From Candidatus Hydrogenedentota bacterium (GTDB lineage Bacteria; Hydrogenedentota; Hydrogenedentia; Hydrogenedentales; JAJRTN01): 57,527 nt of DNA. The position numbers and the translations under genes are program-made. Of the stretch, positions 4,059-47,477 are shown piece after piece (position 1 is the first letter of the stretch; every line of letters starts with the position of its first letter). Location of the stretch: positions 1 through 57,527 of the forward strand of contig JAJRTN010000158.1 in the NCBI GenBank assembly GCA_024278275.1, written 5' to 3'. The notes under the pieces were generated by a model. That model worked only from the letters and a program-made list of their open reading frames with translations, ran no database searches and was not told the origin of the DNA.

Positions 4059-6275
4059 ATGCACGCTGCCATTCGACCGAACACCCTGATCGCCTGCTGC
4101 ATAACCTTGATACTAGCCGCGCCGATCATCGCCCAGCCCACGGAAAACGGGAAGGACCCGACCATGAAAGACCAGTTTCTTAATCCGCCCGATGCCTACC
4201 GTATGCTCCAGATTATCCATGGAAACTTCCATTACCCCCCCGTGGGCGACACCATTGAAGCCATGGCTGAGCGTCTGAAGGAAAATGGCTACGGCGGCGT
4301 GGTGGCCAATGTGAGCTTCGATGATTACCTGGAGAGCGAGGAACATTGGGCCACGTTCTTGAAAGCCCTCGATGTTTACCGCGAAAAAGGGATGACCTTC
4401 TGGCTCTACGACGAAAAAGGCTATCCCAGCGGCAAGGCGGGGGGGCTCACTTTGCGCGGCCATCCGGAGTTCGAGTGCAAAGGGATCATCGCGTCACGGA
4501 TCGAAGGCGAGGGCACACTCCGGATCGAACTGCCGAGGAACGAGCGCATCGACGGCCCGCCGCTGCTGGTGATTGCCGCGCCCGTGGTGGATGGCCGGTA
4601 CGACCTTTCCCGCCAGGTGGACCTCACGGACAAGGTGATCGATGGGGCGGTCGCCTTCGAGACGAAGGGCGGGCCGTGGGGGCTCATGGCCTTCCAGGTC
4701 AAGCGCATGTACGAGGGTACCCACATCGAGGCGAACTACTCGGACACGCTTCCCTACGTGGATATCATGGACCGCGACGCCATCGCCCGGTTCATCGAGG
4801 TGACTCACGAGGCGTACAGGAAACGGTGCAGCCCGGAGGCGTGGGACGCCATCGCCGCCATCTTTACCGACGAGCCGTCTCTCATGGTGGCCTACCTCAA
4901 GGAACGGGAAGGACTCCTGCCCGTGGTGCCCTGGAGCCGCCATTTCCGCGACTATTTCCGGACCCGCTTTGACTACGATATCGTGGCGGAACTGCCCAAG
5001 CTCTTCGTGGACGCGGGGGAAACCACCGTCTATCGCCGGCTCGACTTCTGGCGGGCCGTGGCGGAACTGGTGGAGGAGAACTACTACGGCCAGATACAGG
5101 CATGGTGCCGGGCCAACGGTATCGACGCCTCCGGTCACGGCCTCATCGAGGAGAGCATTTACCATCACGCCCTCTTCGAGGGCGATCACTACCGCAACCT
5201 GCGCAGGATGGACGTGCCCGGTATCGACATGCTCAGCTCGAACCCCACGGAGCTGGCGCGGTCGCGCCAGATTCCCGTGCCCAAGTTCGTCAGCAGCGTC
5301 ACGCACATGATCGGCCGGTGGGAGAACCAGAGCGAAACATCGAGTCATGTGCAGCGTGTGCGGAAGCTGCCCTGCTCCTACGAACAGCGCCTCGCCACCA
5401 TCAACTTCCAGTATGTCCTCGGCCTGACGCGCATCACCTCCTATTATCGCTTCGACGAGTTCGACGACGAACAGCGTGTGGAGTTCAACAACCACATCGC
5501 GCGCCTGGGCTACATGCTCACCCAGGGACGGCATATCGCCGACATCGGGGTCTACTACCCCATCCAGAGCGTGTGGGGCGAACTGACACCCACGGGCGAA
5601 CTCACCTGGAAGCCCCCCGTCGGCGAGCGTGTTCAACGGGTGAACAATCACTTCGGCCATGTCTCCCAGGAGTTGCTCGCCAACCAGCGGGATTTCGACT
5701 ACCTTGATGACGAGGCGATTCTGGAGGCTGAGGTGCGGGACGGTGCGCTCCATCTGCAGGGGGAGGCCTTCCGCTGTGTGGTGCTGCCCGAGGCATGGGT
5801 CATGCCCCTGGAAACCCTCCAGCAATTGGCCGACCTCGTCGAGGCGGGCGGTGGCATCGTAGCCTTGGGCGGGCTGCCGGAGAAAGGCATGAACCCCGAG
5901 GAGACGGAAGGCGTGGTGGCCCTGTCGAAACAACTCGCCGCCTCGGACCGCGTCATCGAAATCCGTGATGTGCCCGGCGTGGCGGAGGCCGTGGGCAAGC
6001 TCGTCCCGGCCGACCTCTTCCTGCGCAATCCCTGCCGCGATCTGTTCTACTGTCACCGCAAGCTCGATGGCAAGGACATTTACTTCCTTGCCAACCTCGC
6101 CGAGGAGACGGTTCAGACCTACGCCGTCTTCCGCACGCAAGGAAAAACGGCCCAACGCTGGGAACCCCGCACCGGCATCATCCGCGATATGACCGAGGTG
6201 ATGAGCGACGATGAAACCCTCATCTGCCCCGTCATGCTTGATCCGTTGGAAGGTGTGTTCGTGGTGATCGAGTAG
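4059..6275 (+). CDS. GH106-like (alpha-L-rhamnosidase family) secreted protein
   Basis: A 738-residue exported protein resembling GH106 enzymes, which release L-rhamnose from plant and microbial glycans. Residues 1-25 form a signal peptide ending AQ. The family-like [15 protein letters not shown] block is near residue 117, IFTDEPS supplies a candidate catalytic acid near 270, and GHGLIEE follows in the barrel. The C-terminal third looks like the beta-rich and GATase-like accessory region. It is shorter than many GH106 enzymes (often near 1000 residues), so the activity could differ. AAGGAG lies 8 bases upstream of the ATG. Confidence 0.75.
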
Positions 6276-12101: not shown

Positions 12102-13181
12102 TCATCCCACCAGGGCCAAACCAATCTCATTGTTGAGATAAAACCCCCGGGCGGTGGGGTGAAAGTGGGTTTGGCTCTCTTCGACGAGACCGCGTGCCAA
12201 TAGAGCCGTCAAGGCGTCCCCGAAATGCTCGTTTACGTCGGCGCCAAAACGGTCGCGATAGGCCGCTTTCGGCAGGCCCTCGCGAAGGCGCATGTGTTGA
12301 ATCACCGTCTCCAGCCGGATCTCTTCTTCCGAAAGGATAAGGGCCTCCATCTTGGTGCCCGGCGCGTTGAGATAGGCGGTCGTGTCGATGACATTGCGCG
12401 CGCGGATACCGTCAATGAAAGAATAGGCGGCGGTCCCAAAGCCCGCGTATTCGGTATTGCGCCAATAGACGAGGTTGTGCTTTGAGGCGTGGCCCGTCTT
12501 AGCAAAATTGGATATTTCGTAATGGTCATAAGCGGCAAGTTTTCGCTCCAGGACCTGGTACAGGGCCAGCGACACATCGTCCTCCACCGCGTTGTCCATT
12601 CGGCGGGCAAAGGGCGTGCCCGGTTCATAGGTAAGTCCGTAGGCGGCGACATGGGGCGGGTCGAGTTCGAGGCACTGGTCCAGGGTCCGTTCCCAGGCGT
12701 TGTTGGGCGGTGCGCCGTAGATAAGGTCGAGACTCCAGGTGTTGAAAACCGCCGCCACGGCCTCGCACGCCCGCCGGGCGGCGGAAGCGTCGTGACGCCG
12801 CCCCAGGTAACGGAGCACGGCATCGTCGAAGCTCTGCACGCCCAGGCTCACGCGATTGATTCCCGTGTTCCGCCAATCGTGGACCAACGCGGGGGTCACG
12901 TCATCGGGGTTGGCCTCGATGGTGATCTCCGGGTTGGTAAACCGAAAGCGCCGACGCAGCGCGTCCAGGATCTCCGCGAGGTCCTTCGGCGGCAGCAGCG
13001 AGGGGGTTCCACCACCGAAGAAAACGCTGCCCGCCTCGTCAGGGCCTCCAAACCTTTCGATCTCGGCACATAATGCCTTCAGGTAGGCCTTCGGTACCGA
13101 AGTGGAAGTGCGCTCTTTTACGAAGTCGCAGTATGGGCAGAGCGTACGGCAATAAGGGATGTGAATGTAGATGCCGATCAT
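12102..13181 (-). CDS. hemW: HemW-type radical SAM heme chaperone
   Basis: A 359-residue radical SAM protein of the HemW (HemN-like) family. HemW proteins bind heme and deliver it to respiratory enzymes rather than acting as coproporphyrinogen oxidases. The cluster motif is CRTLCPYCDF with C11, C15 and C18. FFGGGTPSLL is the SAM-binding glycine motif, and HNLVYWRNTEYAGFGTAAYS is the conserved HemW block. The extra Cys found after the cluster in true HemN is absent (Phe20), supporting HemW. The C-terminal HemN_C-like winged helix is present. No strong ribosome site is visible at the ATG. Confidence 0.9.
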   Translation of the reverse strand: MIGIYIHIPYCRTLCPYCDFVKERTSTSVPKAYLKALCAEIERFGGPDEAGSVFFGGGTPSLLPPKDLAEILDALRRRFRFTNPEITIEANPDDVTPALVHDWRNTGINRVSLGVQSFDDAVLRYLGRRHDASAARRACEAVAAVFNTWSLDLIYGAPPNNAWERTLDQCLELDPPHVAAYGLTYEPGTPFARRMDNAVEDDVSLALYQVLERKLAAYDHYEISNFAKTGHASKHNLVYWRNTEYAGFGTAAYSFIDGIRARNVIDTTAYLNAPGTKMEALILSEEEIRLETVIQHMRLREGLPKAAYRDRFGADVNEHFGDALTALLARGLVEESQTHFHPTARGFYLNNEIGLALVG

Positions 13182-13409: not shown

Positions 13410-14882
13410 TCAGGGGCGTCCCCAGCGTGATGGCGGCCACCAGGAACAAACGGCCTTTCCCACCAGTCCGCGCCGGGGCACCCAACCCACGGAACGACTG
13501 TCCACGGTTTCTCCCTCGGCTTCCGACAGAATGAAATAGTGTTCTTCGGGAACCCGTGACTTGCCTTTCCCTTTGCCCACGCCAAAGTGTGCATCGGCGA
13601 CCGCTTCGCTGAACGTACGTGAGGCAAGGCTGTCCGGCGTCTCCACCGGCGCGCCATCCACGTGCAGTATGCCGTGGCTGACCTTCACCGTTTCGCCGGG
13701 CAGACCGGCGATGCGCCCGACGAGCATCTCCTTCGTGCCCGGACGGCTCTCCGGCGGATGATAGGCCACCAGGTCGCCCCGACCGGGACGGCCCCACTGG
13801 TAAAGCCAGTATCGCGTGAAGGGAAGGCGCAAACCAAAGGCGCCAAAGCTGATCCAAAGATGGCTCTTGCCCTTTTCCGCGCCGGTCCGCACGGCCACCG
13901 AACGCCCCAGCAGCAGCCGGATGGCGGTCCATAGCGCGAGCAGAACCAACAGCGTGCGCCACCAGAGGGTTTGGGAAAAACCCGTGAAATCGCGCCATCG
14001 CGGCGGCGGCCAGAAGATGGAGGCCACACGGCCAACGATATGCTCGTTGGGTACGAAACCGTAGTAGCGGCCGTCCTTGCTGTTTGCGCTGTTGTCGCCC
14101 AGCATGAGGTAATGGCCCTCGGGCACGACGGCAAACTCCTTTTCGGGGCGCACGGCGTAGAGCATGCCAAACCCCTTCTCGGAAGGAGATGGCATCTTCA
14201 GGGGGGCGGTATAGAAATGATCCTTGGGCATGAAATCGGGATAGGGGACGCGCTTACCGTCGATGTAGAGATCGGCTTTGCCCATGGCGCCCTGCATCAG
14301 GTGCCGACCACTGTTTCGCACGGACTCATCCCGCAGACGCAACTCCACGCGCTCGCCGGGAAGACCGACAATACGTTTGACCAGCGTGCCATGGAGTGCG
14401 TTCTTCTCCACTGCCTTGAAGACCACGATGTCCCAGCGTTCGGGCTTCTTGCCGTGGTAGAGGCGATGGTTCATGAAAGGGACCTTCAGCCCGTACACCC
14501 ACTTATTCACCCATACCCGGTCACCCCGCCCGATGCGTGGGTCACCGTGTAAGGTGGTTTCCATCGACCCGGAAGGGATCCGATACGGCTCGGCGATGGC
14601 CCAACGGAAGGTCAGGGCCAGGCTCAGCGCGAAGATCTCGCTCTTGAACCATTCAATGGCCTGTTCACGGGGAAGGGTGGCGTAAAAAACCAGGTGCAGG
14701 CCAATCACGGCGAGAAGGGCGCCCGCGTACCACACCCACCCTGGCAGGGAGGGGTTCCGCTTGGTCATTACGATGGCCGCGACCCCCGCCACCAGGCAGG
14801 CCGCGCCCATGGCCCAAGCCTGCTTGGGCAAGGCACGGCGCCCATTCGTGGCATCATGTTTCTTGCGTGGTTTCTTTGCCAT
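13410..14882 (-). CDS. lepB: Signal peptidase I with a second, degenerate peptidase domain
   Basis: A 490-residue inner-membrane protein. Two N-terminal helices precede a complete S26 signal peptidase domain with nucleophile Ser106 (IPSGSM), general base Lys169 (LVKRIVGLPGE) and GDNSANSKDGRYYG. After a linking helix (about 306-326) a second copy (about 333-490) repeats the same order: GLRLPFTRYWLYQWGRPGRGD, VGRIAGLPGETVKV and ILSEAEGETVDSRSVGWVP. In this copy the GSM serine segment is missing and the lysine is Gly389, so it cannot cleave. It is 27 bases downstream of another lepB and shares its operon. The second half may bind substrate or partner; that is inference. Confidence 0.88.
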   Translation of the reverse strand: MAKKPRKKHDATNGRRALPKQAWAMGAACLVAGVAAIVMTKRNPSLPGWVWYAGALLAVIGLHLVFYATLPREQAIEWFKSEIFALSLALTFRWAIAEPYRIPSGSMETTLHGDPRIGRGDRVWVNKWVYGLKVPFMNHRLYHGKKPERWDIVVFKAVEKNALHGTLVKRIVGLPGERVELRLRDESVRNSGRHLMQGAMGKADLYIDGKRVPYPDFMPKDHFYTAPLKMPSPSEKGFGMLYAVRPEKEFAVVPEGHYLMLGDNSANSKDGRYYGFVPNEHIVGRVASIFWPPPRWRDFTGFSQTLWWRTLLVLLALWTAIRLLLGRSVAVRTGAEKGKSHLWISFGAFGLRLPFTRYWLYQWGRPGRGDLVAYHPPESRPGTKEMLVGRIAGLPGETVKVSHGILHVDGAPVETPDSLASRTFSEAVADAHFGVGKGKGKSRVPEEHYFILSEAEGETVDSRSVGWVPRRGLVGKAVCSWWPPSRWGRP

Positions 14883-14909
14883 GTTCTCTCGTAATCTCCG
14901 CCCGGCGGG

Positions 14910-15836
14910 CTAAACGTTTAAGCCCCGTTTCCGCATTTTTCGACGGCGAAAAAAATGCCGGATTTCGTTTCCGGCCAGCAGGAGTGGAAGCCCAAAGAGC
15001 AAGAGCCTGCCCCACCACGTGCGTGAGAAACCGGTGAAATCCCGCCAGTGCGCGGGCGGCCACCAGATATTGGATACCCGTCCCAGAATGTGGTCCTTCG
15101 GCAGCCAGCCGAAATAGCGGCCGTCCCGGCTGTTGCCGCTGTTGTCCCCCAGGACAAGATAATGTCCCTCGGGTACGTGCATGGACTGGGGCGTTTCATA
15201 CACCGCGTACCGCATGCGGGGATCCGTCGTGTAACGCTGATCCTTGGCCATGCCTTGGCCCCAGGGGACCACTTTGCCATTTACCCAAAGACGTCCATCC
15301 CGAATGAGAACGTCCTCGCCGGGCAGACCGGCGATGCGTTTCACCAGCGTCCCATACCTGGCGTTTTCCTCGGCGCTGTGAAACACCACGATGTCCCACC
15401 GTTCCGGGTCCTTCCCTTCCCAAATACGCTTGTTTGTGAAAGGGATACGCAAACCATAAACCCACTTATTGACCAGTACGCGGTCATCGGTAAGGAAATT
15501 GCCCTTACCGTGCAGCGTAGGCTCCATGGAACTCGACGGGATTTTGAAAGGTTGTGCAATGGCCCACTGCACCGGCAGCAGCACGGCTAATACCAGTGCC
15601 GCGGCACGCATCCACTCGAAAACATGGCTCCGTTCCACGCCGCCGGAAAGAAACACATAGGTTCCCATCGCGCCGAGAATGATACCCAGTCCCCGAAGCC
15701 AATCGGGCAGGAGATCGCCGTTGACCATGCCCAGGATCACCATGCCCACGCCGATGGCGGCAAGCACCACCCCCCCAATCGCGGGGATTCCCATACTTTG
15801 GATCGTTGTGGATTGACGCTGGTGTTTTTCATTCAT
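14910..15836 (-). CDS. lepB: Signal peptidase I
   Basis: A 308-residue signal peptidase I, which removes signal peptides from Sec- and Tat-exported proteins on the periplasmic side. Helices span about 19-36, 48-64 and 76-92. The catalytic Ser103 lies in IPSSSMEPTLHG, Lys166 in GTLVKRIAGLPGE, and the S26 box GDNSGNSRDGRYFG follows. A further helix near the C-terminus precedes a basic tail (RRRKMRKRG). It is the promoter-proximal gene of a two-gene lepB operon. The two proteins share many exact stretches (VNKWVYGL, DFTGFS), so they arose by duplication. Confidence 0.93.
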   Translation of the reverse strand: MNEKHQRQSTTIQSMGIPAIGGVVLAAIGVGMVILGMVNGDLLPDWLRGLGIILGAMGTYVFLSGGVERSHVFEWMRAAALVLAVLLPVQWAIAQPFKIPSSSMEPTLHGKGNFLTDDRVLVNKWVYGLRIPFTNKRIWEGKDPERWDIVVFHSAEENARYGTLVKRIAGLPGEDVLIRDGRLWVNGKVVPWGQGMAKDQRYTTDPRMRYAVYETPQSMHVPEGHYLVLGDNSGNSRDGRYFGWLPKDHILGRVSNIWWPPAHWRDFTGFSRTWWGRLLLFGLPLLLAGNEIRHFFRRRKMRKRGLNV

Positions 15837-16079: not shown

Positions 16080-17141
16080 CTATTCGTATTTATAGATCCA
16101 GGGGCCCTGACCGCCCGGCATCTTGGGATCGGGAAGGTCGTTATCGGTGGTGAAGGTGCCCCGTTTGGTCCTCACTTCATAGGGTCCCACGCTGCCTTCG
16201 CCCCTCTTGGTCCGCGCCGTGAAATCGAAATCCAACTCGCCATTCGTGTTCAGGTCGCGCGTGGCGAGGAAGTACGTCCGAAGGGCGGAGATGTGATACC
16301 AGTCAAGCTGATTGATCCCCGTTCCGGTAATGGGGGTGTTGGCGAGAATACCGTGTGTGTTGGTGCCGGGCCCCACGCTGATCAGCACGAAAGCGTCGTA
16401 GGTCGCGGGGGGAAAGGTAACATTCCGAAGACGGGGGTCGTTGGGTTCCCAGATGCGCGCCTCCAGGGCGGCGTTGGTACCATTGGCGTCCGTGCCGATC
16501 TCGGCCGCCCGTTCAAGCCAGTACTTCCGCACGGTTTTGAATTGACGGAGGTTTACCGGAACGTAAATGAAAGGGCGCTGTTGCAGCGACATCTGCTGCT
16601 GTACCTGGCCGGAAAGGTTGTTACCCAGGTAAAGCTCCAGGGGATAGGACTTCACCCCGGTGACCACGTCTTCTTGCGGGATGGGTGAATACTCCATCAT
16701 GCCCAACTGGTTGTCCCGGTCCGTGTCGTAGCCTTCGCTGAACTCGTCGACAATATCCTTGTCCTCGTTGAGTCGAAGGAAGCCGGACAGAGGGATCAGA
16801 TAATAAACGACCTCTTGCATCAACCTCTTGCTGAGGTCGTTATCTTCTCTGAACCTCGGATCTTGCTGTACTTGTTGCCATGTTTGTCCCCGTGTGGCCC
16901 ACGACCGGAAGCCGTAGCCGGGAGGATAGGAACCATGGTCGGCCATGTAGGTGACCAGGGCGGTACGGATCTGGTTCAGATTGTTGGTAAGTGCCTTCTC
17001 CCGGGCTTTTTCCAGGACGCGCGGCAGGGCGCCGAAGGTAAGGCCGGCCAGGATGGCAATGATGGCAATGACCGTGAGCAATTCGATGAGCGTGAAGCCG
17101 TCGTGCTGCCGGGTGGCCGTTCGGTTTCGGGTCTTGTTCAT
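16080..17141 (-). CDS. Type II secretion/type IV pilus-like major pseudopilin
   Basis: A 353-residue prepilin-like protein. A short basic leader ends at Gly, then FTLIELLTVIAIIAILAG forms the class III signal and hydrophobic spine. A prepilin peptidase cuts before Phe and methylates it, and Glu5 is present. The soluble part is larger than typical GspG and includes an Asp-rich loop (DTDRDNQ, DLNTNGELDFD) that may bind calcium. The ATG at 17141 has GGGGAG 9 bases upstream. It stands alone, with its own terminator, as many planctomycete-style DUF1559/GspG-like pseudopilins do. Its secretion machine is not in the window. Confidence 0.85.
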   Translation of the reverse strand: MNKTRNRTATRQHDGFTLIELLTVIAIIAILAGLTFGALPRVLEKAREKALTNNLNQIRTALVTYMADHGSYPPGYGFRSWATRGQTWQQVQQDPRFREDNDLSKRLMQEVVYYLIPLSGFLRLNEDKDIVDEFSEGYDTDRDNQLGMMEYSPIPQEDVVTGVKSYPLELYLGNNLSGQVQQQMSLQQRPFIYVPVNLRQFKTVRKYWLERAAEIGTDANGTNAALEARIWEPNDPRLRNVTFPPATYDAFVLISVGPGTNTHGILANTPITGTGINQLDWYHISALRTYFLATRDLNTNGELDFDFTARTKRGEGSVGPYEVRTKRGTFTTDNDLPDPKMPGGQGPWIYKYE

Positions 17142-17618
17142 GCTGGGCATCTCCCCAAATGATGTTGGTCGCGGCGCTGCCTGTCTCGCGCGGCACGCGA
17201 CAACCACGGGCGGCACAAGCCATGGAAAGCAACTCCACAGTTTACAAAATGATACCATGCCTCCCTTGGACGGTCAACATATCTCTTTACAGGTTGCCCT
17301 TCGTAAATCCAGCGGTTCTAAGTGGATACAACGCAAAATAAGATTACTGCGGGAGGAAGCGGTTTACGACATCCCGACCCGGCCAGGCCGGGACCGGTAA
17401 TCGCCCCCGCCGTTCGTGCCACGCCCCCCCGTCATCCCCGCGAAAGCGGGGCTGACGGGGTAAACACATTTCCGTGACCATAGGCATGGAGCTTCACGGG
17501 GAAGAGACCAATCCGTACATGTTGGGAGCGCAGCGGGGGTGGCGTGTCTTTGGATATGTCCAGATTGCCACGGCCGCCCAGGCTCCCGGCAATGACGGTC
17601 CATGAAAGGCGTAAGCGG
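17142..17618. other. Intergenic region with one REP hairpin
   Basis: This 477-base gap separates the downstream end of hemL from the start of the pseudopilin gene. It holds the pseudopilin promoter (not resolved) and a REP-type hairpin at 17428-17459. I see no credible gene. Confidence 0.6.
17428..17459. repeat. REP hairpin (GTCATCCCCGCG family)
   Basis: CCCCGC-GAAA-GCGGGG forms a perfect stem with a GAAA tetraloop, flanked by CCCGTCA and TGACGGG that extend the pairing. It is related to the doublet at 13273-13360 and lies downstream of hemL on the minus strand, where it may also protect the 3' end of the mRNA. Confidence 0.8.
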
Positions 17619-39243: not shown

Positions 39244-42054
39244 CTAGGCACGCGATCCTTTGTATTTCGACTTTGAACCGCCGCGGCCTTTCTTGACGGT
39301 TTTCTTCTTCGCTTCATTTCCCGCCTCGGCCTTGTTGCCCTTCTTGGCGGTTTCGGTGCGCGTCTCACGGCGCATCCAGTAGACGGCCGAACTCGCCACG
39401 AAAATGGAGGAGTAGGTACCAACGATCACACCGATCATCAGGCACAAGGCAAAATCGTTGATGGCGTCGCCACCAAAGAGGAATAGCACCAGGACCACGA
39501 ACAAGGTGGTCAAGGAAGTAAGGAGCGTTCGGCTCAAGGTCTGGTTGATGGCGAAATCGAGGATTTCAATGTACTTCAGGCCTTTGCCGCGATAATTCGC
39601 CACATCCTCGCGGATACGGTCGAACACCACGATGGTGTCATTCAAGGAGTAACCGATGATGGTCAGGACGGCCGCCACGACATTCATGGAAATATGGCGC
39701 CCCAGGAGGGCCAGGATCCCCACGGTGATAAGCACGTCGTGGGCCAGGGCCAGGAAAGCGCCGGCGGCAAAACGCCAGTCAAAGCGGAAGACAATGTATA
39801 TGCTGATGAACACGAAGGACCAAATAATGCAGGCAATGGCGTCGGTTCGGAGTTGCTTGCCCACCGCGGGCCCGACGGTCTCCACCTGGTCGGGCACGAT
39901 TTTTCCATCGCCCGCCAGGGGCAGCAAAGCATCCTCGATACGGGCGGCCACCGTCTTCACCCCGTTTTTGCCGCCTTTACCGGAAGCGGTGTCATCGGTC
40001 ACCTTTTCCGGCGCATTTCCCTCGCCACTCACGCGAATCAGGAAACGGTTCTCGGAAAAGCCGCCTCGGCTGGCTTCCTGTACCTGGGGTCCTTTGAAGC
40101 CGGCCTCCACGAGGGCCGAGCGCACGTGCCCCACTTCAATGTTGTCTTCCGTGTCAATGTGCAGCGTGACATTGGTGCCCTCGGTGAAGTCCACGCCATA
40201 CATGTCTTTGCCGCGCATGCCGAAAACCACCATGCCGACGGTGATGACGACAAGGCTCACGGTGACGGCCACCCACCGGGCGCTCAGGAAGCGGACCTTG
40301 CTTTCGGCGGGGACGACACTGAGCATGGTCAACTTCTTCAGCCACCCCTTGGCGAGGAGGAAATCGAAGATGGCCCGGGTCACCACGAGGGCGGAAAACA
40401 CGCTGGTGCAGACGCCCACGCTGAGGGTGATGGCGAAGCCTTCGATGGGACCCGTGCCGAACTGCATGAGTACGGCGGCCGCGATGAGGGTGGTTACGTT
40501 CGCATCCAGGATGGTGATCGTGGCCCGGCTGAAACCACTGTCCACGGAGGAGGCCAAGGAATGGCCCAGGCGCAGTTCCTCGCGGATGCGCTCGAAAATG
40601 AGCACGTTGGCGTCCACCGCCATGCCGATGGTGAGGATCAAACCCGCGATGCCGGGAAGGGTGAGGGTCATGTCGAAGTAGGCCATGGCGGCCACCACGA
40701 AGATGGCGTTCAGCGCCAGGCCGATCAAGGCGATAATACCGGCAATGTGGTAATAAACGAGCATGAAGATGCCGACCAGGGCGATACCGATGAGCGCGGA
40801 GGTCACGCCGCTGTGTACAGAATCGGCGCCCAGGGTGGCGCCGACCACGCCGCTGTATTCTTCCTTGATGGGCACGACCATGGAGCCCGAGTTCAGGGCG
40901 ATGGCCAGGTCGGTGGCGTCGGCCGCCTCGAAATTCCCGGTGATCTGTCCGCTGTACCCGATGGCCTCATTGATGACCGGCGCGGAGAGCACCACGTCAT
41001 CCACGACGATAGCCATGCGGCGGCCCACGTTTTCCCCGGTGGCCTTTTTGAAATCGTTGGCCGCCTCGTTCTGCATCTGGAAATTGATCATCCAGGAGGG
41101 GGCGCGCTGCTGGTCGGGCATGGCTATGGCGGACTTGATGCCCGAACCGGAAGCCAGGGGCTTTTTCTCCAGCACGTACAGCCTGTAATCCGTCTGCTTT
41201 TCCCATGGCTTGGGGGGCTGGCTGAAGCGAACGACCTTGTCTTCGGGGATGATGCCGTCCGCCTCGGCCTTGGCCAGGAAGGTCGCCATGTGGTTGTAAT
41301 TCTCGGCGCTCACATGCCAGTCATCGCCCCGCAGCTCGGGTGGAATGAGAAGGTTGGTGAAGGCCTCGCCGTACTTCGCCTTCATCTTGGTGAAAACATC
41401 CACCGTTTCGTCGGCGCCGGCCACGATCTGAAAGTTGAGCACGGCGGTCTTGGTGATCAGGGCCTGGGCACGGCGGACATTCTTTTCGCCGGGGAGCTGT
41501 ACCTGCACTTTATCGTCGCCCAGGGCCTGAATGATCGGCTCGCGGGCCTCGAAATCATGGATGCGGCGGCTGACCTGTTGAACTACCGTGTCCTGGATTT
41601 GTTTACGGATATCCGCATCGCTCATCTTGTATTCATTGCGCAGGATGTCCAGTTTTTCCTTGGGAAGGTCGTTGATGTCGAAACCAATAATCATATGGAC
41701 GCCGCCCTGGAGGTCGAGCCCCAGGGTAATGACGCGGCTGCGGTCGAATTCCGACCAGCGGCGGATGTTGTGCCAGAGTTTTTCGAAGTAACCGAGCTTT
41801 TTACCGGCCCATTGGGCGTCCTGTTCCCGCCAGATCTCTTCGCGCCACTCGCGGGTTCCCTTGGCGGGTTTTGGCAGGGCTTCGAGCGCTTTCTGCCGTT
41901 CGGCCCTGTCCTCGATGGCCAGGGCCTGCTCGCGCTTGGCGAGCCATTCCTGGTCGCTGTCAAGGGTCATCCAGCCGATGGTGGGGTAGATGTTCACCAA
42001 GGCCACGACGATCACAAACCAAATGAGGAGAGCGCGGTAAGGGTGCTTGTTCAT
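39244..42054 (-). CDS. secDF: Fused protein-export factor SecDF
   Basis: A 936-residue proton-driven accessory factor of the Sec translocon. The SecD half (1 to about 600) begins with one helix, then the periplasmic region with GLDLQGGVHMIIGFD near 113, followed by the helix bundle. The SecF half (about 610-905) has a new first helix, GKDMYGVDFTEGTNVTL and the second bundle with AHDVLITVGI and SLNDTIVVFDRIRED. A single continuous frame joins both halves, as in other bacteria with fused SecDF. The C-terminus is Lys-rich. It is the last gene of tgt-yajC-secDF and is followed by a strong terminator. Confidence 0.95.
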   Translation of the reverse strand: MNKHPYRALLIWFVIVVALVNIYPTIGWMTLDSDQEWLAKREQALAIEDRAERQKALEALPKPAKGTREWREEIWREQDAQWAGKKLGYFEKLWHNIRRWSEFDRSRVITLGLDLQGGVHMIIGFDINDLPKEKLDILRNEYKMSDADIRKQIQDTVVQQVSRRIHDFEAREPIIQALGDDKVQVQLPGEKNVRRAQALITKTAVLNFQIVAGADETVDVFTKMKAKYGEAFTNLLIPPELRGDDWHVSAENYNHMATFLAKAEADGIIPEDKVVRFSQPPKPWEKQTDYRLYVLEKKPLASGSGIKSAIAMPDQQRAPSWMINFQMQNEAANDFKKATGENVGRRMAIVVDDVVLSAPVINEAIGYSGQITGNFEAADATDLAIALNSGSMVVPIKEEYSGVVGATLGADSVHSGVTSALIGIALVGIFMLVYYHIAGIIALIGLALNAIFVVAAMAYFDMTLTLPGIAGLILTIGMAVDANVLIFERIREELRLGHSLASSVDSGFSRATITILDANVTTLIAAAVLMQFGTGPIEGFAITLSVGVCTSVFSALVVTRAIFDFLLAKGWLKKLTMLSVVPAESKVRFLSARWVAVTVSLVVITVGMVVFGMRGKDMYGVDFTEGTNVTLHIDTEDNIEVGHVRSALVEAGFKGPQVQEASRGGFSENRFLIRVSGEGNAPEKVTDDTASGKGGKNGVKTVAARIEDALLPLAGDGKIVPDQVETVGPAVGKQLRTDAIACIIWSFVFISIYIVFRFDWRFAAGAFLALAHDVLITVGILALLGRHISMNVVAAVLTIIGYSLNDTIVVFDRIREDVANYRGKGLKYIEILDFAINQTLSRTLLTSLTTLFVVLVLFLFGGDAINDFALCLMIGVIVGTYSSIFVASSAVYWMRRETRTETAKKGNKAEAGNEAKKKTVKKGRGGSKSKYKGSRA

Positions 42055-43877: not shown

Positions 43878-46800
43878 TCAAGGCGTTGCCCGGACCCGGG
43901 CTTTGCGTTGGGCCAGTAACTGCTGCACAAGCGCAAGCACCCGGGGTCTTTTCGCCTGCGTCGCAATGGACTCGGATGATTTGCCGAGTGCGGAAGGCTG
44001 TGTCAGGGATGCGCCGTGTTCAACCAACAGCCTGATCATCTCCAGGTGTCCCTCCTGGATCGCCTCCTGGAGAGGGGTAAATCCGTCCATCGTGTCCGCC
44101 TGCCGTTCCAGGGAGGCGCCATGATTCAGCAGGAATCGGGCGGCATCCAGGCGCCCGAACCGGGCGGCCCAGTGCAGGGGGGTTCGGCCAAAGCTGGAAT
44201 GATCCAGGTATTCCGGATAGAACTCATGAAGCGTTGTGAGCCTTTCCATGTCGCCGGCGATGGCGGATTGCCGGTATTCCTCGTAAACGACCGCGCGCAG
44301 GTAGAAACGCATTCGACTGTAGCGCCAATGGCGCTTCAGTTTTTCCTCGTTTGACAGCGAGGCCAGCCGGCGTGGCTCCAGCATGATCGCTTCGGTGAGG
44401 TCGATAGGGGTTTGGCCTTTTTGGTTTCGGACCGTGAACTCTCCACCCTTGCGGATAACATTCTGAAGAAATTCGATGTTGCCGCCGATAATGGCGCAAT
44501 GGACCACCGTATCGCCCGCTTTGTCCGGCCTGTTGGGATCCTGCCCCCGAATGGAAAACGGCCTTGCGGCGCGCACATTGCCCGCCAGGGCACAGAGATG
44601 GAGCGGCATGCGTCCGTCGGCGTCTGGCCGATTCGGGTCCGCGCCCGCTTTAATCAGGGTGTCAATGAATTCGACATTACCACGCAATGCCGCCAGGTGG
44701 AGGGGGGTGCGGCCATCTTCATCTGCGGGGTTGACATCGATTTTCCGGGCGAGAAGCAGGTCGAGCACTTCCCTGCCGCCCTCGCGGGCGGCTATATGAA
44801 GGGGGGTGCGGCCATGCCGGTCGGGTTGCGAGGCATCGGAACCCATGAAGAGAAGCCATTCCAGCATGAGCCCGCGGTCAAGCCTCGCGGCGATATGGAC
44901 CAGGCTTTGTCCCTTTCGGTCACGCCTGGCGAGGTCGCTTCCGAGAATGGCCAAGTGGCGGGCCAGGGAAAAGTGGTCCCTCGCCACGGCGAGTGCAAGC
45001 GGCGTGTGCCCCTCGCGGTTGATGGCGTCGAGGCCCGCGCTCTGTGAGACCAGCCAATCGACCATGCGGCGGTGTCCAGATTCCGCGGCGAGATGAAGGG
45101 GGGTGTCCCGGCCCCGGTCGCGTGCGGTGAGAACGGCGCCCGCGCCGGCCAACATGCGGGCAATGTCCATGTGGCCCTGAACGGCCGCAATGTGCAGTGG
45201 TGTACGTCCGTAAATATCACGACGGGAAATCACGGCGCCCCGTTCGATGAGGCATTTAACGGCGGCGGGGTGGTCGGCGCGGGTTGCAGTGTGAAGCGGT
45301 GTAAAGCGCAGACGCGCCACGGCGTTCACGTCGGCCCCATGGTCGAGGAGACAGGCCAGGGTATCCGGCAGTCCCAGGCTCGCGGCGATATGAAGGGGCG
45401 TGCGGCCTTCCTTATCGTGATGGTTGATTTCGGCTCCCCGGTCGGTGAGTAGTGCGATGGCCGCGCACTGTCCTTTCGCGGTGGCCGAGAAAACCGCGGT
45501 CTGCCCTTTGAAATCAAGGTTCTCCACCTGGGCACCATAGTCGAGGAGAAACCTGATTACCTTCAGTTTTCCCGCGCGCGCTGCCCGGTGCAGCAGGGGA
45601 TCACGTATCTGGAAGACGCCGATTCCATCCACGCGGGCCCCGGCCTTGAGCAGTAATTCCGCGATATCGAAGGTGGGCAGTGCCAGGGACTGGCTGAAGG
45701 CGGAATCACCGGCGCGGGTGATGGCATGGACGTTGGCGCGTTTTTTGAGCAGGAAGAGCACCATATCACGCTGGTTACCCGCGACGGCGGAGAAAAGGGG
45801 CGTTTGGCCCAAGTAGTTTTCTTCTTCAATCCGGGCGGGCCGACGTTGGATCATGTCGCGCACGGCGTTGATGTCGCCCAAGGCCGCGGCCTGGTGAATG
45901 TTGTAATCGGGGCCCAAGCGCCGCAACAGCGCTGTGGCCGCCCACTGCTTCGCTCTTCCCGCGATGAGCAGGGGTGGAGAATAAGCGTTGGGTTCCGCCT
46001 TGGCCGCCATATCGGCGCCCAGGGCGACGAGGGTTTCGATGGCGCCCAGGCTTCCGTGTTCGGCGGCCACATGGAGCGGAGTGTAATGCTTGCCATTGCG
46101 CGCCATGATATCCTGCCCGCGCCGGTGCAGCATGCGAATCATGTAGACACGGTTTGCGGCCGCGGCCAGGTGGATGGCGTAATTGCCAAAGGCATCACGC
46201 GCGTTTGTATCGGCGCCGCTGTCCCAAAGGGCGTTCATCATATGGGCGTCCCCTTCCTCCGCGGCGATGAGCACGGGGGAACCCGCTGGATCAGCGTTTC
46301 CATCATTCGCCATTCCCGCATCGATGAGATCCAGGGCCGTGTAAAGATCGTGAGCGGCCACGGCCTGCGCCAGCGATGCGTACAGGAAGGGGTGCCCCCG
46401 CGGTCGAAGGCCCTTTACATCCAACGCGCCAATGCCGTCCAGAACGGGCGGCGGCATTACCATGGCGGGCAATTCGCGTTTCGCGATGGGGCCGCGCGCG
46501 GAGGGCGTCAGCCGCAATTCACGGGGCCGGTCATAAATGTTAGGCTCTATCTCCAGGTCCTTCGGAAGGGGTTGCCAAGGTACTTCCGGCTCGTTTTTTC
46601 CAGTTTGTAATATCTTGTCATCTGTGGGTGACGGTGGAGCGGTCTGCTTCGGTGGCGGTGCTGCCGGTTCCGGCGCTTCGCGCAGCACGGTGGGAATGGT
46701 GGGGCCGTAAGCCCCCTCGATGGCCTGTTTCAGCAAGGTTTCGGAGGCGCTGAGTTCCTCCTCGGAGGGGGATGATGTGTCGGAGGGCTTTTCGGTTGCC

Positions 46801-47057
46801 TGCGCGGTCTCGTCGGGCGCAACGTCCGATGACGGCGCTGCCGGTTCCGGCGCTTCGCGCAGCACGGTGGGAATGGTGGGCCCGTAAGCGTTCTCGATGG
46901 CTTTTTTCAGCAAGATTTCGGAGGCGCTGAGTTCCTCCTCGGTTGGTTCGGAAAGGGTCCCGTTTTCTGGATTTTCATCCCCTGCCCGGGCCATGGAACA
47001 CAGCACGGCCATTCCGCCGGCGATGAGGAACACGAAAAGCCAAAACAGCCGATTCAC
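43878..47057 (-). CDS. Giant membrane-anchored ankyrin-repeat protein
   Basis: A 1059-residue protein. Residues 1-25 form a signal or anchor helix (LFWLFVFLIAGGMAVLCSMARAG). A Pro/Glu/Ser-rich region (about 27-190) contains a 35-residue unit duplicated almost exactly, with ELSASE, LLK.AIE and AYGPTIPTVLREAPEPAAP. About 22-25 ankyrin repeats follow (about 195-1045; GRTPLHIAA and similar), likely a long protein-binding solenoid facing the periplasm. The GTG at 47057 has AAAAGGA 8 bases upstream, preferred over the ATG at 47129. The function is not deducible; it is separated from tgt by 140 bases. Confidence 0.88.
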   Translation of the reverse strand: MNRLFWLFVFLIAGGMAVLCSMARAGDENPENGTLSEPTEEELSASEILLKKAIENAYGPTIPTVLREAPEPAAPSSDVAPDETAQATEKPSDTSSPSEEELSASETLLKQAIEGAYGPTIPTVLREAPEPAAPPPKQTAPPSPTDDKILQTGKNEPEVPWQPLPKDLEIEPNIYDRPRELRLTPSARGPIAKRELPAMVMPPPVLDGIGALDVKGLRPRGHPFLYASLAQAVAAHDLYTALDLIDAGMANDGNADPAGSPVLIAAEEGDAHMMNALWDSGADTNARDAFGNYAIHLAAAANRVYMIRMLHRRGQDIMARNGKHYTPLHVAAEHGSLGAIETLVALGADMAAKAEPNAYSPPLLIAGRAKQWAATALLRRLGPDYNIHQAAALGDINAVRDMIQRRPARIEEENYLGQTPLFSAVAGNQRDMVLFLLKKRANVHAITRAGDSAFSQSLALPTFDIAELLLKAGARVDGIGVFQIRDPLLHRAARAGKLKVIRFLLDYGAQVENLDFKGQTAVFSATAKGQCAAIALLTDRGAEINHHDKEGRTPLHIAASLGLPDTLACLLDHGADVNAVARLRFTPLHTATRADHPAAVKCLIERGAVISRRDIYGRTPLHIAAVQGHMDIARMLAGAGAVLTARDRGRDTPLHLAAESGHRRMVDWLVSQSAGLDAINREGHTPLALAVARDHFSLARHLAILGSDLARRDRKGQSLVHIAARLDRGLMLEWLLFMGSDASQPDRHGRTPLHIAAREGGREVLDLLLARKIDVNPADEDGRTPLHLAALRGNVEFIDTLIKAGADPNRPDADGRMPLHLCALAGNVRAARPFSIRGQDPNRPDKAGDTVVHCAIIGGNIEFLQNVIRKGGEFTVRNQKGQTPIDLTEAIMLEPRRLASLSNEEKLKRHWRYSRMRFYLRAVVYEEYRQSAIAGDMERLTTLHEFYPEYLDHSSFGRTPLHWAARFGRLDAARFLLNHGASLERQADTMDGFTPLQEAIQEGHLEMIRLLVEHGASLTQPSALGKSSESIATQAKRPRVLALVQQLLAQRKARVRATP
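46659..46940. repeat. Internal duplication in the ankyrin gene
   Basis: Bases 46659-46763 and 46836-46940 are near-identical 105-base units with a 177-base period. Both encode the ELSASE-to-EPAAP segment. Bases match as well as residues, so the duplication is recent. Confidence 0.85.
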
Positions 47058-47477
47058 GTGTAAAATCCTTTTCCCGGTCCTTCCACCGGGAGCGTATTTG
47101 CGCCGCGGCCGGGGACCCGTTATTGACATCGTGATCTTGACACAGGCGCGGAGGGCCTCTCAACTTATTAAAGCCCTACCCCGTGAAATCCTGTACAAAC
47201 GGCATGGAGCCCCGTGCTCGCGGGGATGAGGATAACGTAGAAGCGGCTTCCAGCCGCTTTGAAGAGGCGGGAAGCCGCTTGTCCGTTGGGCCGGACCGTG
47301 ATTCCCCACGGGGAGGATGCTCCCCCCCTGGCGTGGAGCCTTCGCCGCAAACGGTCGCGCGGGAGTGCGATCCGACCGGGTTTCCATGAGCGGTTACGGA
47401 GTGCTTTTTGTGCCGGGGGGGACGGGTCAAAGCAGACAGGCCTCGCCGTCCCCAGGCTGCGGGGTATTCGCACGGGG
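47058..47477. other. Intergenic region with palindromic repeats
   Basis: This 420-base gap holds palindromes. AAGCGGCT-TCC-AGCCGCTT lies at 47241-47259, with a further AGCCGCTT at 47273. A CCCCGTGCTCGCGGGG unit lies at about 47211-47226, and GGAGGATGCTCC lies near 47311. No gene was identified in it. Confidence 0.6.
47241..47280. repeat. AAGCGGCT palindromic repeat
   Basis: An 8-bp perfect stem with a 3-base loop (47241-47259) is followed by another copy of the right arm (47273-47280). It belongs to a different palindrome family from the GTCATTCC type. Confidence 0.65.

What the first reader, a model, noticed from the sequence alone, without database searches (positions are those of the whole stretch)
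13410..15836. Tandem signal peptidases, one carrying an inactive second peptidase domain
Two adjacent lepB genes encode three S26 domains. The third (residues about 333-490 of the downstream protein) keeps the fold landmarks but lacks the Ser segment and has Gly389 instead of Lys. A catalytic plus pseudo-peptidase fusion could widen or gate substrate choice in a cell with many sorted exoproteins.
Basis: partly seen in the sequence, partly recalled or inferred. Interest (0 to 1): 0.6.

Follow-up and report, generated by a model that had tools for sequence, protein, structure and literature searches.

The report
Signal peptidase with conserved dead domain
An enzyme that trims exported proteins carries, at its end, a second copy of its own domain that has lost every catalytic residue, and this odd arrangement is kept under selection throughout a whole bacterial phylum (Candidatus Hydrogenedentota), so the dead copy very probably does a job other than cutting.

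Summary
Window 14910-15836 (-) and 13410-14882 (-) encode two type I signal peptidases with three S26 domains; the third (residues ~327-490 of the downstream protein) lacks the Ser box and has Gly389 in place of Lys. The C-terminal part is predicted with high confidence (pLDDT 88, pTM 0.87) and matches only S26 structures. The fusion occurs in 57 of 68 genomes and all 11 families of its phylum, Candidatus Hydrogenedentota. The dead domain has one origin, Gly at the Lys site in 46/46 proteins, a lost box-E Gly in 46/46, and pooled dN/dS about 0.21 (catalytic domain 0.06). It was not seen elsewhere (115 Verrucomicrobiota genomes, other top hits). The proposed role in sorting exoproteins is not supported: the fusion is equally present in genomes without exosortase or PEP-CTERM proteins, and often sits beside lepA and hemW. 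A single transmembrane helix (306-325) joins the domains, so the dead domain is predicted on the cytoplasmic face. Best reading: a non-catalytic docking or regulatory module, comparable to S. pyogenes SipA but fused and phylum-wide. The function is inferred, not shown.

The parts
14910..15836 (-). P0002: upstream single-domain type I signal peptidase, 308 aa, Ser/Lys dyad kept; B-like catalytic domain but A-like C-terminal TM and basic tail
13410..14882 (-). P0001: downstream fused signal peptidase, 490 aa (catalytic S26 + TM4 + pseudo-S26)
14595..14825 (-). P0001 residues 20-96: three predicted N-terminal transmembrane helices (20-42, 48-68, 72-96)
   Evidence: AF2 model; hydropathy
14007..14591 (-). 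P0001 residues 98-292: catalytic S26 domain
   Evidence: PF10502 76-291; model
14565..14567 (-). Ser106, nucleophile of the catalytic domain (46/46 conserved)
14376..14378 (-). Lys169, general base of the catalytic domain (46/46 conserved)
13908..13967 (-). P0001 residues 306-325: TM4 linking the two S26 domains
   Evidence: AF2 helix; KD19 1.85; basic flank on its C-terminal side
13413..13904 (-). P0001 residues 327-490: pseudo-S26 domain without catalytic residues
13716..13718 (-). [quoted passage not shown]
13482..13526 (-). Residues 453-467: box E remnant; the Gly272-equivalent is Ser453 (never Gly in 46), DSRxxGW largely kept

Best explanation
The downstream gene encodes an active-type signal peptidase I whose C-terminus carries a second, catalytically dead S26 domain. 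SHOWN by sequence comparison: three S26 domains; intact dyads in two of them; loss of Ser, Lys and the box-E Gly in the third; the fusion throughout Candidatus Hydrogenedentota with one origin of the dead domain; purifying selection on it. PREDICTED: it folds as an S26 domain and is joined by a single membrane helix (TM4), which puts it on the cytoplasmic face if the catalytic domain is outside. INFERRED: it works as a non-catalytic binding or docking module, holding the peptidase next to a partner (for instance the translocon or the preprotein before cleavage) or modulating it, in the way SipA uses a dead S26 fold for something other than cutting.
For: Domain hits and dyad states. Fold: full-length pLDDT 85; dead domain alone pLDDT 88, pTM 0.87; all 25 PDB matches with E <= 1e-3 are S26 proteins, including SipA 4n31 (TM-score 0.66 on the target). 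Distribution: C-domain ORF in 57/68 genomes and 11/11 families, 54 genomes with a full-length two-domain ORF; some absences are contig ends (G004, G037). One origin of the C-domains (group support 99). Selection: pooled omega 0.21 for the dead domain (Fisher p 5e-47) against 0.06 for the catalytic domain. Gly389 46/46 and Gly453 0/46 repeat the Lys->Gly plus Gly272 replacement described in SipA (PMC4049620). Topology: TM4 as hydrophobic as TM1-TM3; K/R after TM4 exceed K/R before it in 41 of 68 proteins against 8 the other way; the homologous TM4 of single-domain copies ends in a strongly basic tail.
Against: No function was tested. No coordinates or inter-domain error were available, so domain contacts are unknown. 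The net charge of the dead-domain core does not separate it from the outer domain (more positive in 22 of 46), so topology rests on one helix and its flanks. The dead domain has about 3-4 times the omega of the catalytic one, is eroded at its end or box E in five f3 genomes (G011, G013, G014, G016, G017) and is absent from A copies of most families, so it is not indispensable everywhere.
Confidence: 0.5

Rival explanations
1. The dead domain lies on the outer face beside the catalytic domain and binds or gates signal peptides. TM4 would then be an in-plane helix rather than a crossing one.
For: The strand bearing the former Lys keeps its hydrophobic neighbours; SipA, on the outer face, keeps a peptide-binding cleft after losing the dyad (PMC4049620). 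TM4 holds Arg near both ends.
Against: TM4 is a 20-residue predicted helix as hydrophobic as the other TMs, with a basic C-terminal flank. The Ser-bearing strand that forms the other cleft wall is replaced by variable sequence. No link with exosortase or PEP-CTERM proteins.
Confidence: 0.22
2. The dead domain is a leftover of an internal duplication that now serves only as a structural or stability element and is slowly being lost.
For: Faster evolution than the catalytic domain (omega 0.21 against 0.06); end or box-E erosion in five f3 genomes; short degenerate C-domains in A copies of f5 and f11 and none in A copies of other families.
Against: Intact across all 11 families with invariant Gly389, P354 and G350 and a conserved DSRxLGW and WWP; omega significantly below 1 in each of six close pairs; only one frameshifted copy found (G002).
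Confidence: 0.22
3. The third domain is an active peptidase with unusual catalytic residues.
For: It keeps the S26 fold and the Asp-Ser-Arg of box E.
Against: Nucleophile region variable, general base Gly in 46/46, box-E Gly lost in 46/46; no conserved Ser/Lys/Asp set replaces them. SipA with similar losses has no detectable peptidase activity (PMC4049620).
Confidence: 0.03
4. The fusion is an assembly or reading-frame artefact of this genome.
For: The source is a draft genome of 200 contigs; no read data were available.
Against: The same two-domain ORF recurs uninterrupted in 54 independent genomes with selection on both halves.
Confidence: 0.01

Closest known systems
Type I signal peptidase LepB / SPase I (MEROPS S26A; PF10502, TIGR02227)
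   Same: Both N-terminal domains: profile hits above cut-off, Ser-Lys dyad, box E; lepA-lepB adjacency as in the E. coli lep operon (the latter recalled from general knowledge).
   Different: P0001 has a second, dead S26 domain after an extra TM; three TMs precede the catalytic domain.
SipA of Streptococcus pyogenes (PDB 4n31, 4k8w)
   Same: S26 fold without dyad; Gly at the Lys site and the Gly272 equivalent replaced by a larger residue; matched by Foldseek with the dead domain.
   Different: SipA is a separate protein in pilus/sortase operons of streptococci and has Asp at the Ser site; here the dead domain is fused to an active-type enzyme and the Ser site is variable.
SpsA next to SpsB of Staphylococcus
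   Same: An inactive S26 homologue lacking both catalytic residues in the same genome as an active one (PMC12445088).
   Different: Separate proteins; SpsA is dispensable. Here one polypeptide, conserved across a phylum.

Membership tests
Type I signal peptidase (S26A): P0002 and residues 76-292 of P0001 | Profile match above curated cut-off (PF10502, TIGR02227) | tested here: met
Type I signal peptidase (S26A): P0002 and residues 76-292 of P0001 | Ser nucleophile and Lys general base in boxes B and D | tested here: met
   IPSGSM / LVKR in P0001, IPSSSM / LVKR in P0002; 46/46 in the fused proteins
Type I signal peptidase (S26A): P0002 and residues 76-292 of P0001 | Cleaves signal peptides | not testable with these tools
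   needs an enzyme assay or complementation
Type I signal peptidase (S26A): residues 327-490 of P0001 | S26 fold / profile | tested here: met
   79.4 bits PF10502; model pTM 0.87, PDB matches all S26 at E <= 1e-3
Type I signal peptidase (S26A): residues 327-490 of P0001 | Ser-Lys dyad and box-E Gly | tested here: not met
   no Ser box, Gly389 for Lys, Ser453 for Gly: so not filed as a peptidase
SipA-type pseudo-signal-peptidase | S26 fold with Gly for the catalytic Lys and loss of the box-E Gly | tested here: met
   PMC4049620
SipA-type pseudo-signal-peptidase | Stand-alone protein in a pilus/sortase gene cluster | tested here: not met
   fused to a catalytic domain; recurrent neighbours are lepA, hemW and recO
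SipA-type pseudo-signal-peptidase | Required for assembly of a surface structure | not testable with these tools
   needs mutants
SpsA-type inactive paralogue | Separate inactive SPase gene beside an active one | tested here: not met
   the adjacent gene P0002 keeps its dyad; the dead unit is a domain of P0001

The most novel reading that the evidence does not exclude
In Candidatus Hydrogenedentota a signal peptidase duplicated its membrane-helix-plus-S26 unit within one gene so that the second copy was inserted with inverted topology. The dead copy folds on the cytoplasmic face and has become a phylum-wide adaptor that couples the outer-face peptidase to cytoplasmic or translocon-side partners.
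Probability: 0.35. Interest if true: 0.75.

Novelty: new variant of a known kind. Interest (0 to 1): 0.5.

Why it matters
Signal peptidase I is normally thought of as a single-domain membrane enzyme acting alone, and dead S26 homologues are known as separate proteins in some Gram-positive bacteria. A phylum in which the dead unit is built into a signal peptidase and kept under selection gives a natural system for asking what an S26 fold does without cutting. If the cytoplasmic placement holds, it would be a case of a signal peptidase with a working part on the other side of the membrane.

Tried and rejected
First scan of genome contigs with P0001 alone found no relatives. The dead-domain alignment over the whole phylum had no stretch conserved enough for a pattern scan; a narrower full-length alignment worked. 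Link with PEP-CTERM/exosortase sorting: rejected as an explanation, because many exosortase-free genomes keep the fusion. The five eroded copies are all exosortase-free but belong to three genera of one family, so this is only a hint. Overall domain charge as a topology marker: not informative. Presence outside the phylum: ten other genomes and 115 Verrucomicrobiota genomes gave no two-domain match; scans keyed on the catalytic domain could miss very diverged fusions elsewhere. Literature searches found no description of such a fusion in the open-access library; subscription journals were not searched. A promoter/terminator scan gave no more sites than shuffles.

Full report
Observation. The two genes lie on the minus strand: P0002 (308 aa, 14910-15836) is followed 27 nt later by P0001 (490 aa, 13410-14882), then hemW (12102-13181). 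P0002 and the N-terminal domain of P0001 are ordinary type I signal peptidases by profile and by Ser/Lys dyad. The C-terminal part of P0001 scores on its own as S26 (PF10502 79.4 bits, TIGR02227 72.1 bits). It aligns with the post-Ser part of P0002 at 36% identity, lacks the Ser box and has Gly389 for the Lys. The finding is confirmed in every checkable detail.

Fold. An AlphaFold2 model of P0001 with 45 relatives has mean pLDDT 85 and shows three N-terminal helices, the catalytic domain, a 20-residue helix (306-325) and a second domain with the same order of strands. The dead domain alone has pLDDT 88 and pTM 0.87. Its 25 PDB matches with E <= 1e-3 are all S26 proteins: E. coli LepB, SpsB, other SPases and SipA, with TM-score on the target 0.65-0.70 for SipA and 0.67 for 4me8. 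The first refutation test is passed.

Relatives. P0001 finds full-length fusions in most of the 68 genomes of the phylum. Extracted ORFs give a C-domain in 57 genomes from all 11 families, and a full-length two-domain ORF in 54. Several absences are contig ends (G004; G037) or incomplete genomes. The non-Hydrogenedentota loci among the 80 best of the genome scan, ten such genomes searched whole and 115 Verrucomicrobiota genomes show only single-domain proteins. The second refutation test is passed.

Anatomy of the dead site. Among 46 fused proteins the catalytic domain keeps Ser106, Lys169, Gly262, Ser268, Asp270 and Arg272 without exception. In the C-domain the Lys site is Gly in 46/46 and the box-E Gly site is mostly Ser, Ala or Thr and never Gly, while Asp-Ser-Arg and Gly-Trp of box E and the terminal Trp-Trp-Pro are mostly kept. 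The paired loss of Lys and of the neighbouring Gly is what the SipA structure paper describes for SipA (Lys145->Gly85, Gly272->Asn140; PMC4049620).

Origin and selection. In a tree of N- and C-domains with outgroups, all 65 C-domains form one group (support 99), so the dead domain most simply arose once. The B (downstream) copy is two-domain in every family. The A (upstream) copy is single-domain in f1-f4 and f6-f10 wherever it was seen and mostly two-domain, with a shorter and more degenerate C-domain, in f5 and f11; a few f11 A copies are single-domain. Six close pairs give pooled omega 0.21 for the dead domain (Fisher p 5e-47; each pair p <= 4e-6) and 0.06 for the catalytic domain. So it is under purifying selection, weaker than on the enzyme. 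Five f3 genomes have lost the terminal motif or box E.

Topology. TM4 has median Kyte-Doolittle 1.84 over 68 proteins, as high as TM1-TM3 (1.67-1.88). K/R after TM4 exceed those before it in 41 proteins against 8. The homologous TM4 of single-domain copies, P0002 included, ends in a tail such as RHFFRRRKMRKRG. With the catalytic domain outside, one crossing puts the dead domain inside. A hairpin just before box E carries on average -1.4 charge in the catalytic and +1.9 in the dead domain. The net charge of the domain core is not informative. The placement is a prediction.

Context. Recurrent neighbours are lepA (21 loci), hemW (17) and recO (14) (identified by eye from the sequences, hemW also by Pfam in the window). 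In this genome the recO-lepA-lepB(A) part is on contig C121 and the fusion with hemW is in the window. Exosortase is found in 35/68 and PEP-CTERM in 38/68 genomes. The fusion is intact in many genomes without them, so it is not a device for sorted exoproteins. All 42 genomes at least 90% complete hold several S26 matches, so the fused enzyme need not be the only signal peptidase.

Explanation. The best-supported account is an active-type signal peptidase with a dead S26 domain used as a binding, docking or regulatory module, probably on the cytoplasmic face. Fold, distribution, selection and loss of the dyad are shown or strongly predicted; the side of the membrane is inferred; the partner and the function are unknown. 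Confidence in the anatomy is about 0.95; in the functional statement as worded, 0.5.

Comparison with the known. It works most like SipA (dead S26 fold with a Gly in place of the Lys) but is not a SipA member: no pilus/sortase context and not a stand-alone protein. SpsA/SpsB is the nearest pairing of dead and active units, as separate proteins (PMC12445088). I found no report of the fusion in the library searched. I rate it a new variant of a known kind.

Noticed in passing
window 14910-15836: P0002 groups with B-type (fusion) catalytic domains in the tree but has the A-type C-terminal TM and basic tail, while a proper A copy sits beside lepA on contig C121: it looks like a chimera made by gene conversion or recombination between the tandem copies.
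   Followed up: partly
L156 (Spirochaetaceae bin Cd354_bin11) 4091-5842: An active-type lepB (PSGSM, LIKR) is followed at once by a paralogue with Thr for the catalytic Ser (NETMQP) and Lys kept.
   Followed up: no
L132 (Actinomycetota MAG54) 216-2722: Four consecutive lepB genes, all with Ser and Lys motifs.
   Followed up: no
L157 2847-5636 and L160 3396-5636: S26 domain at the C-terminal end of 930- and 747-aa open frames in Vicinamibacteria/Acidobacteria.
   Followed up: no
L034, L039, L041, L042, L044 (G011, G013, G014, G017, G016): The dead domain is eroded at its end or in box E in three genera of family f3, all without detectable exosortase; most other exosortase-free genomes keep it intact.
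   Followed up: partly
window 39247-42054 (-): 936-aa SecDF-type translocase subunit in the same window, about 25 kb from the signal peptidases.
   Followed up: no
window 43881-47129 (-): 1083-aa protein made largely of ankyrin repeats.
   Followed up: no
window 16083-17258 (-): Protein with a type IV pilin N-methylation motif directly upstream of the signal peptidase pair.
   Followed up: no
G002:C281 (L065, L124): The only frameshifted fusion found: two overlapping frames meet near the end of the catalytic domain; could be a sequencing error.
   Followed up: no
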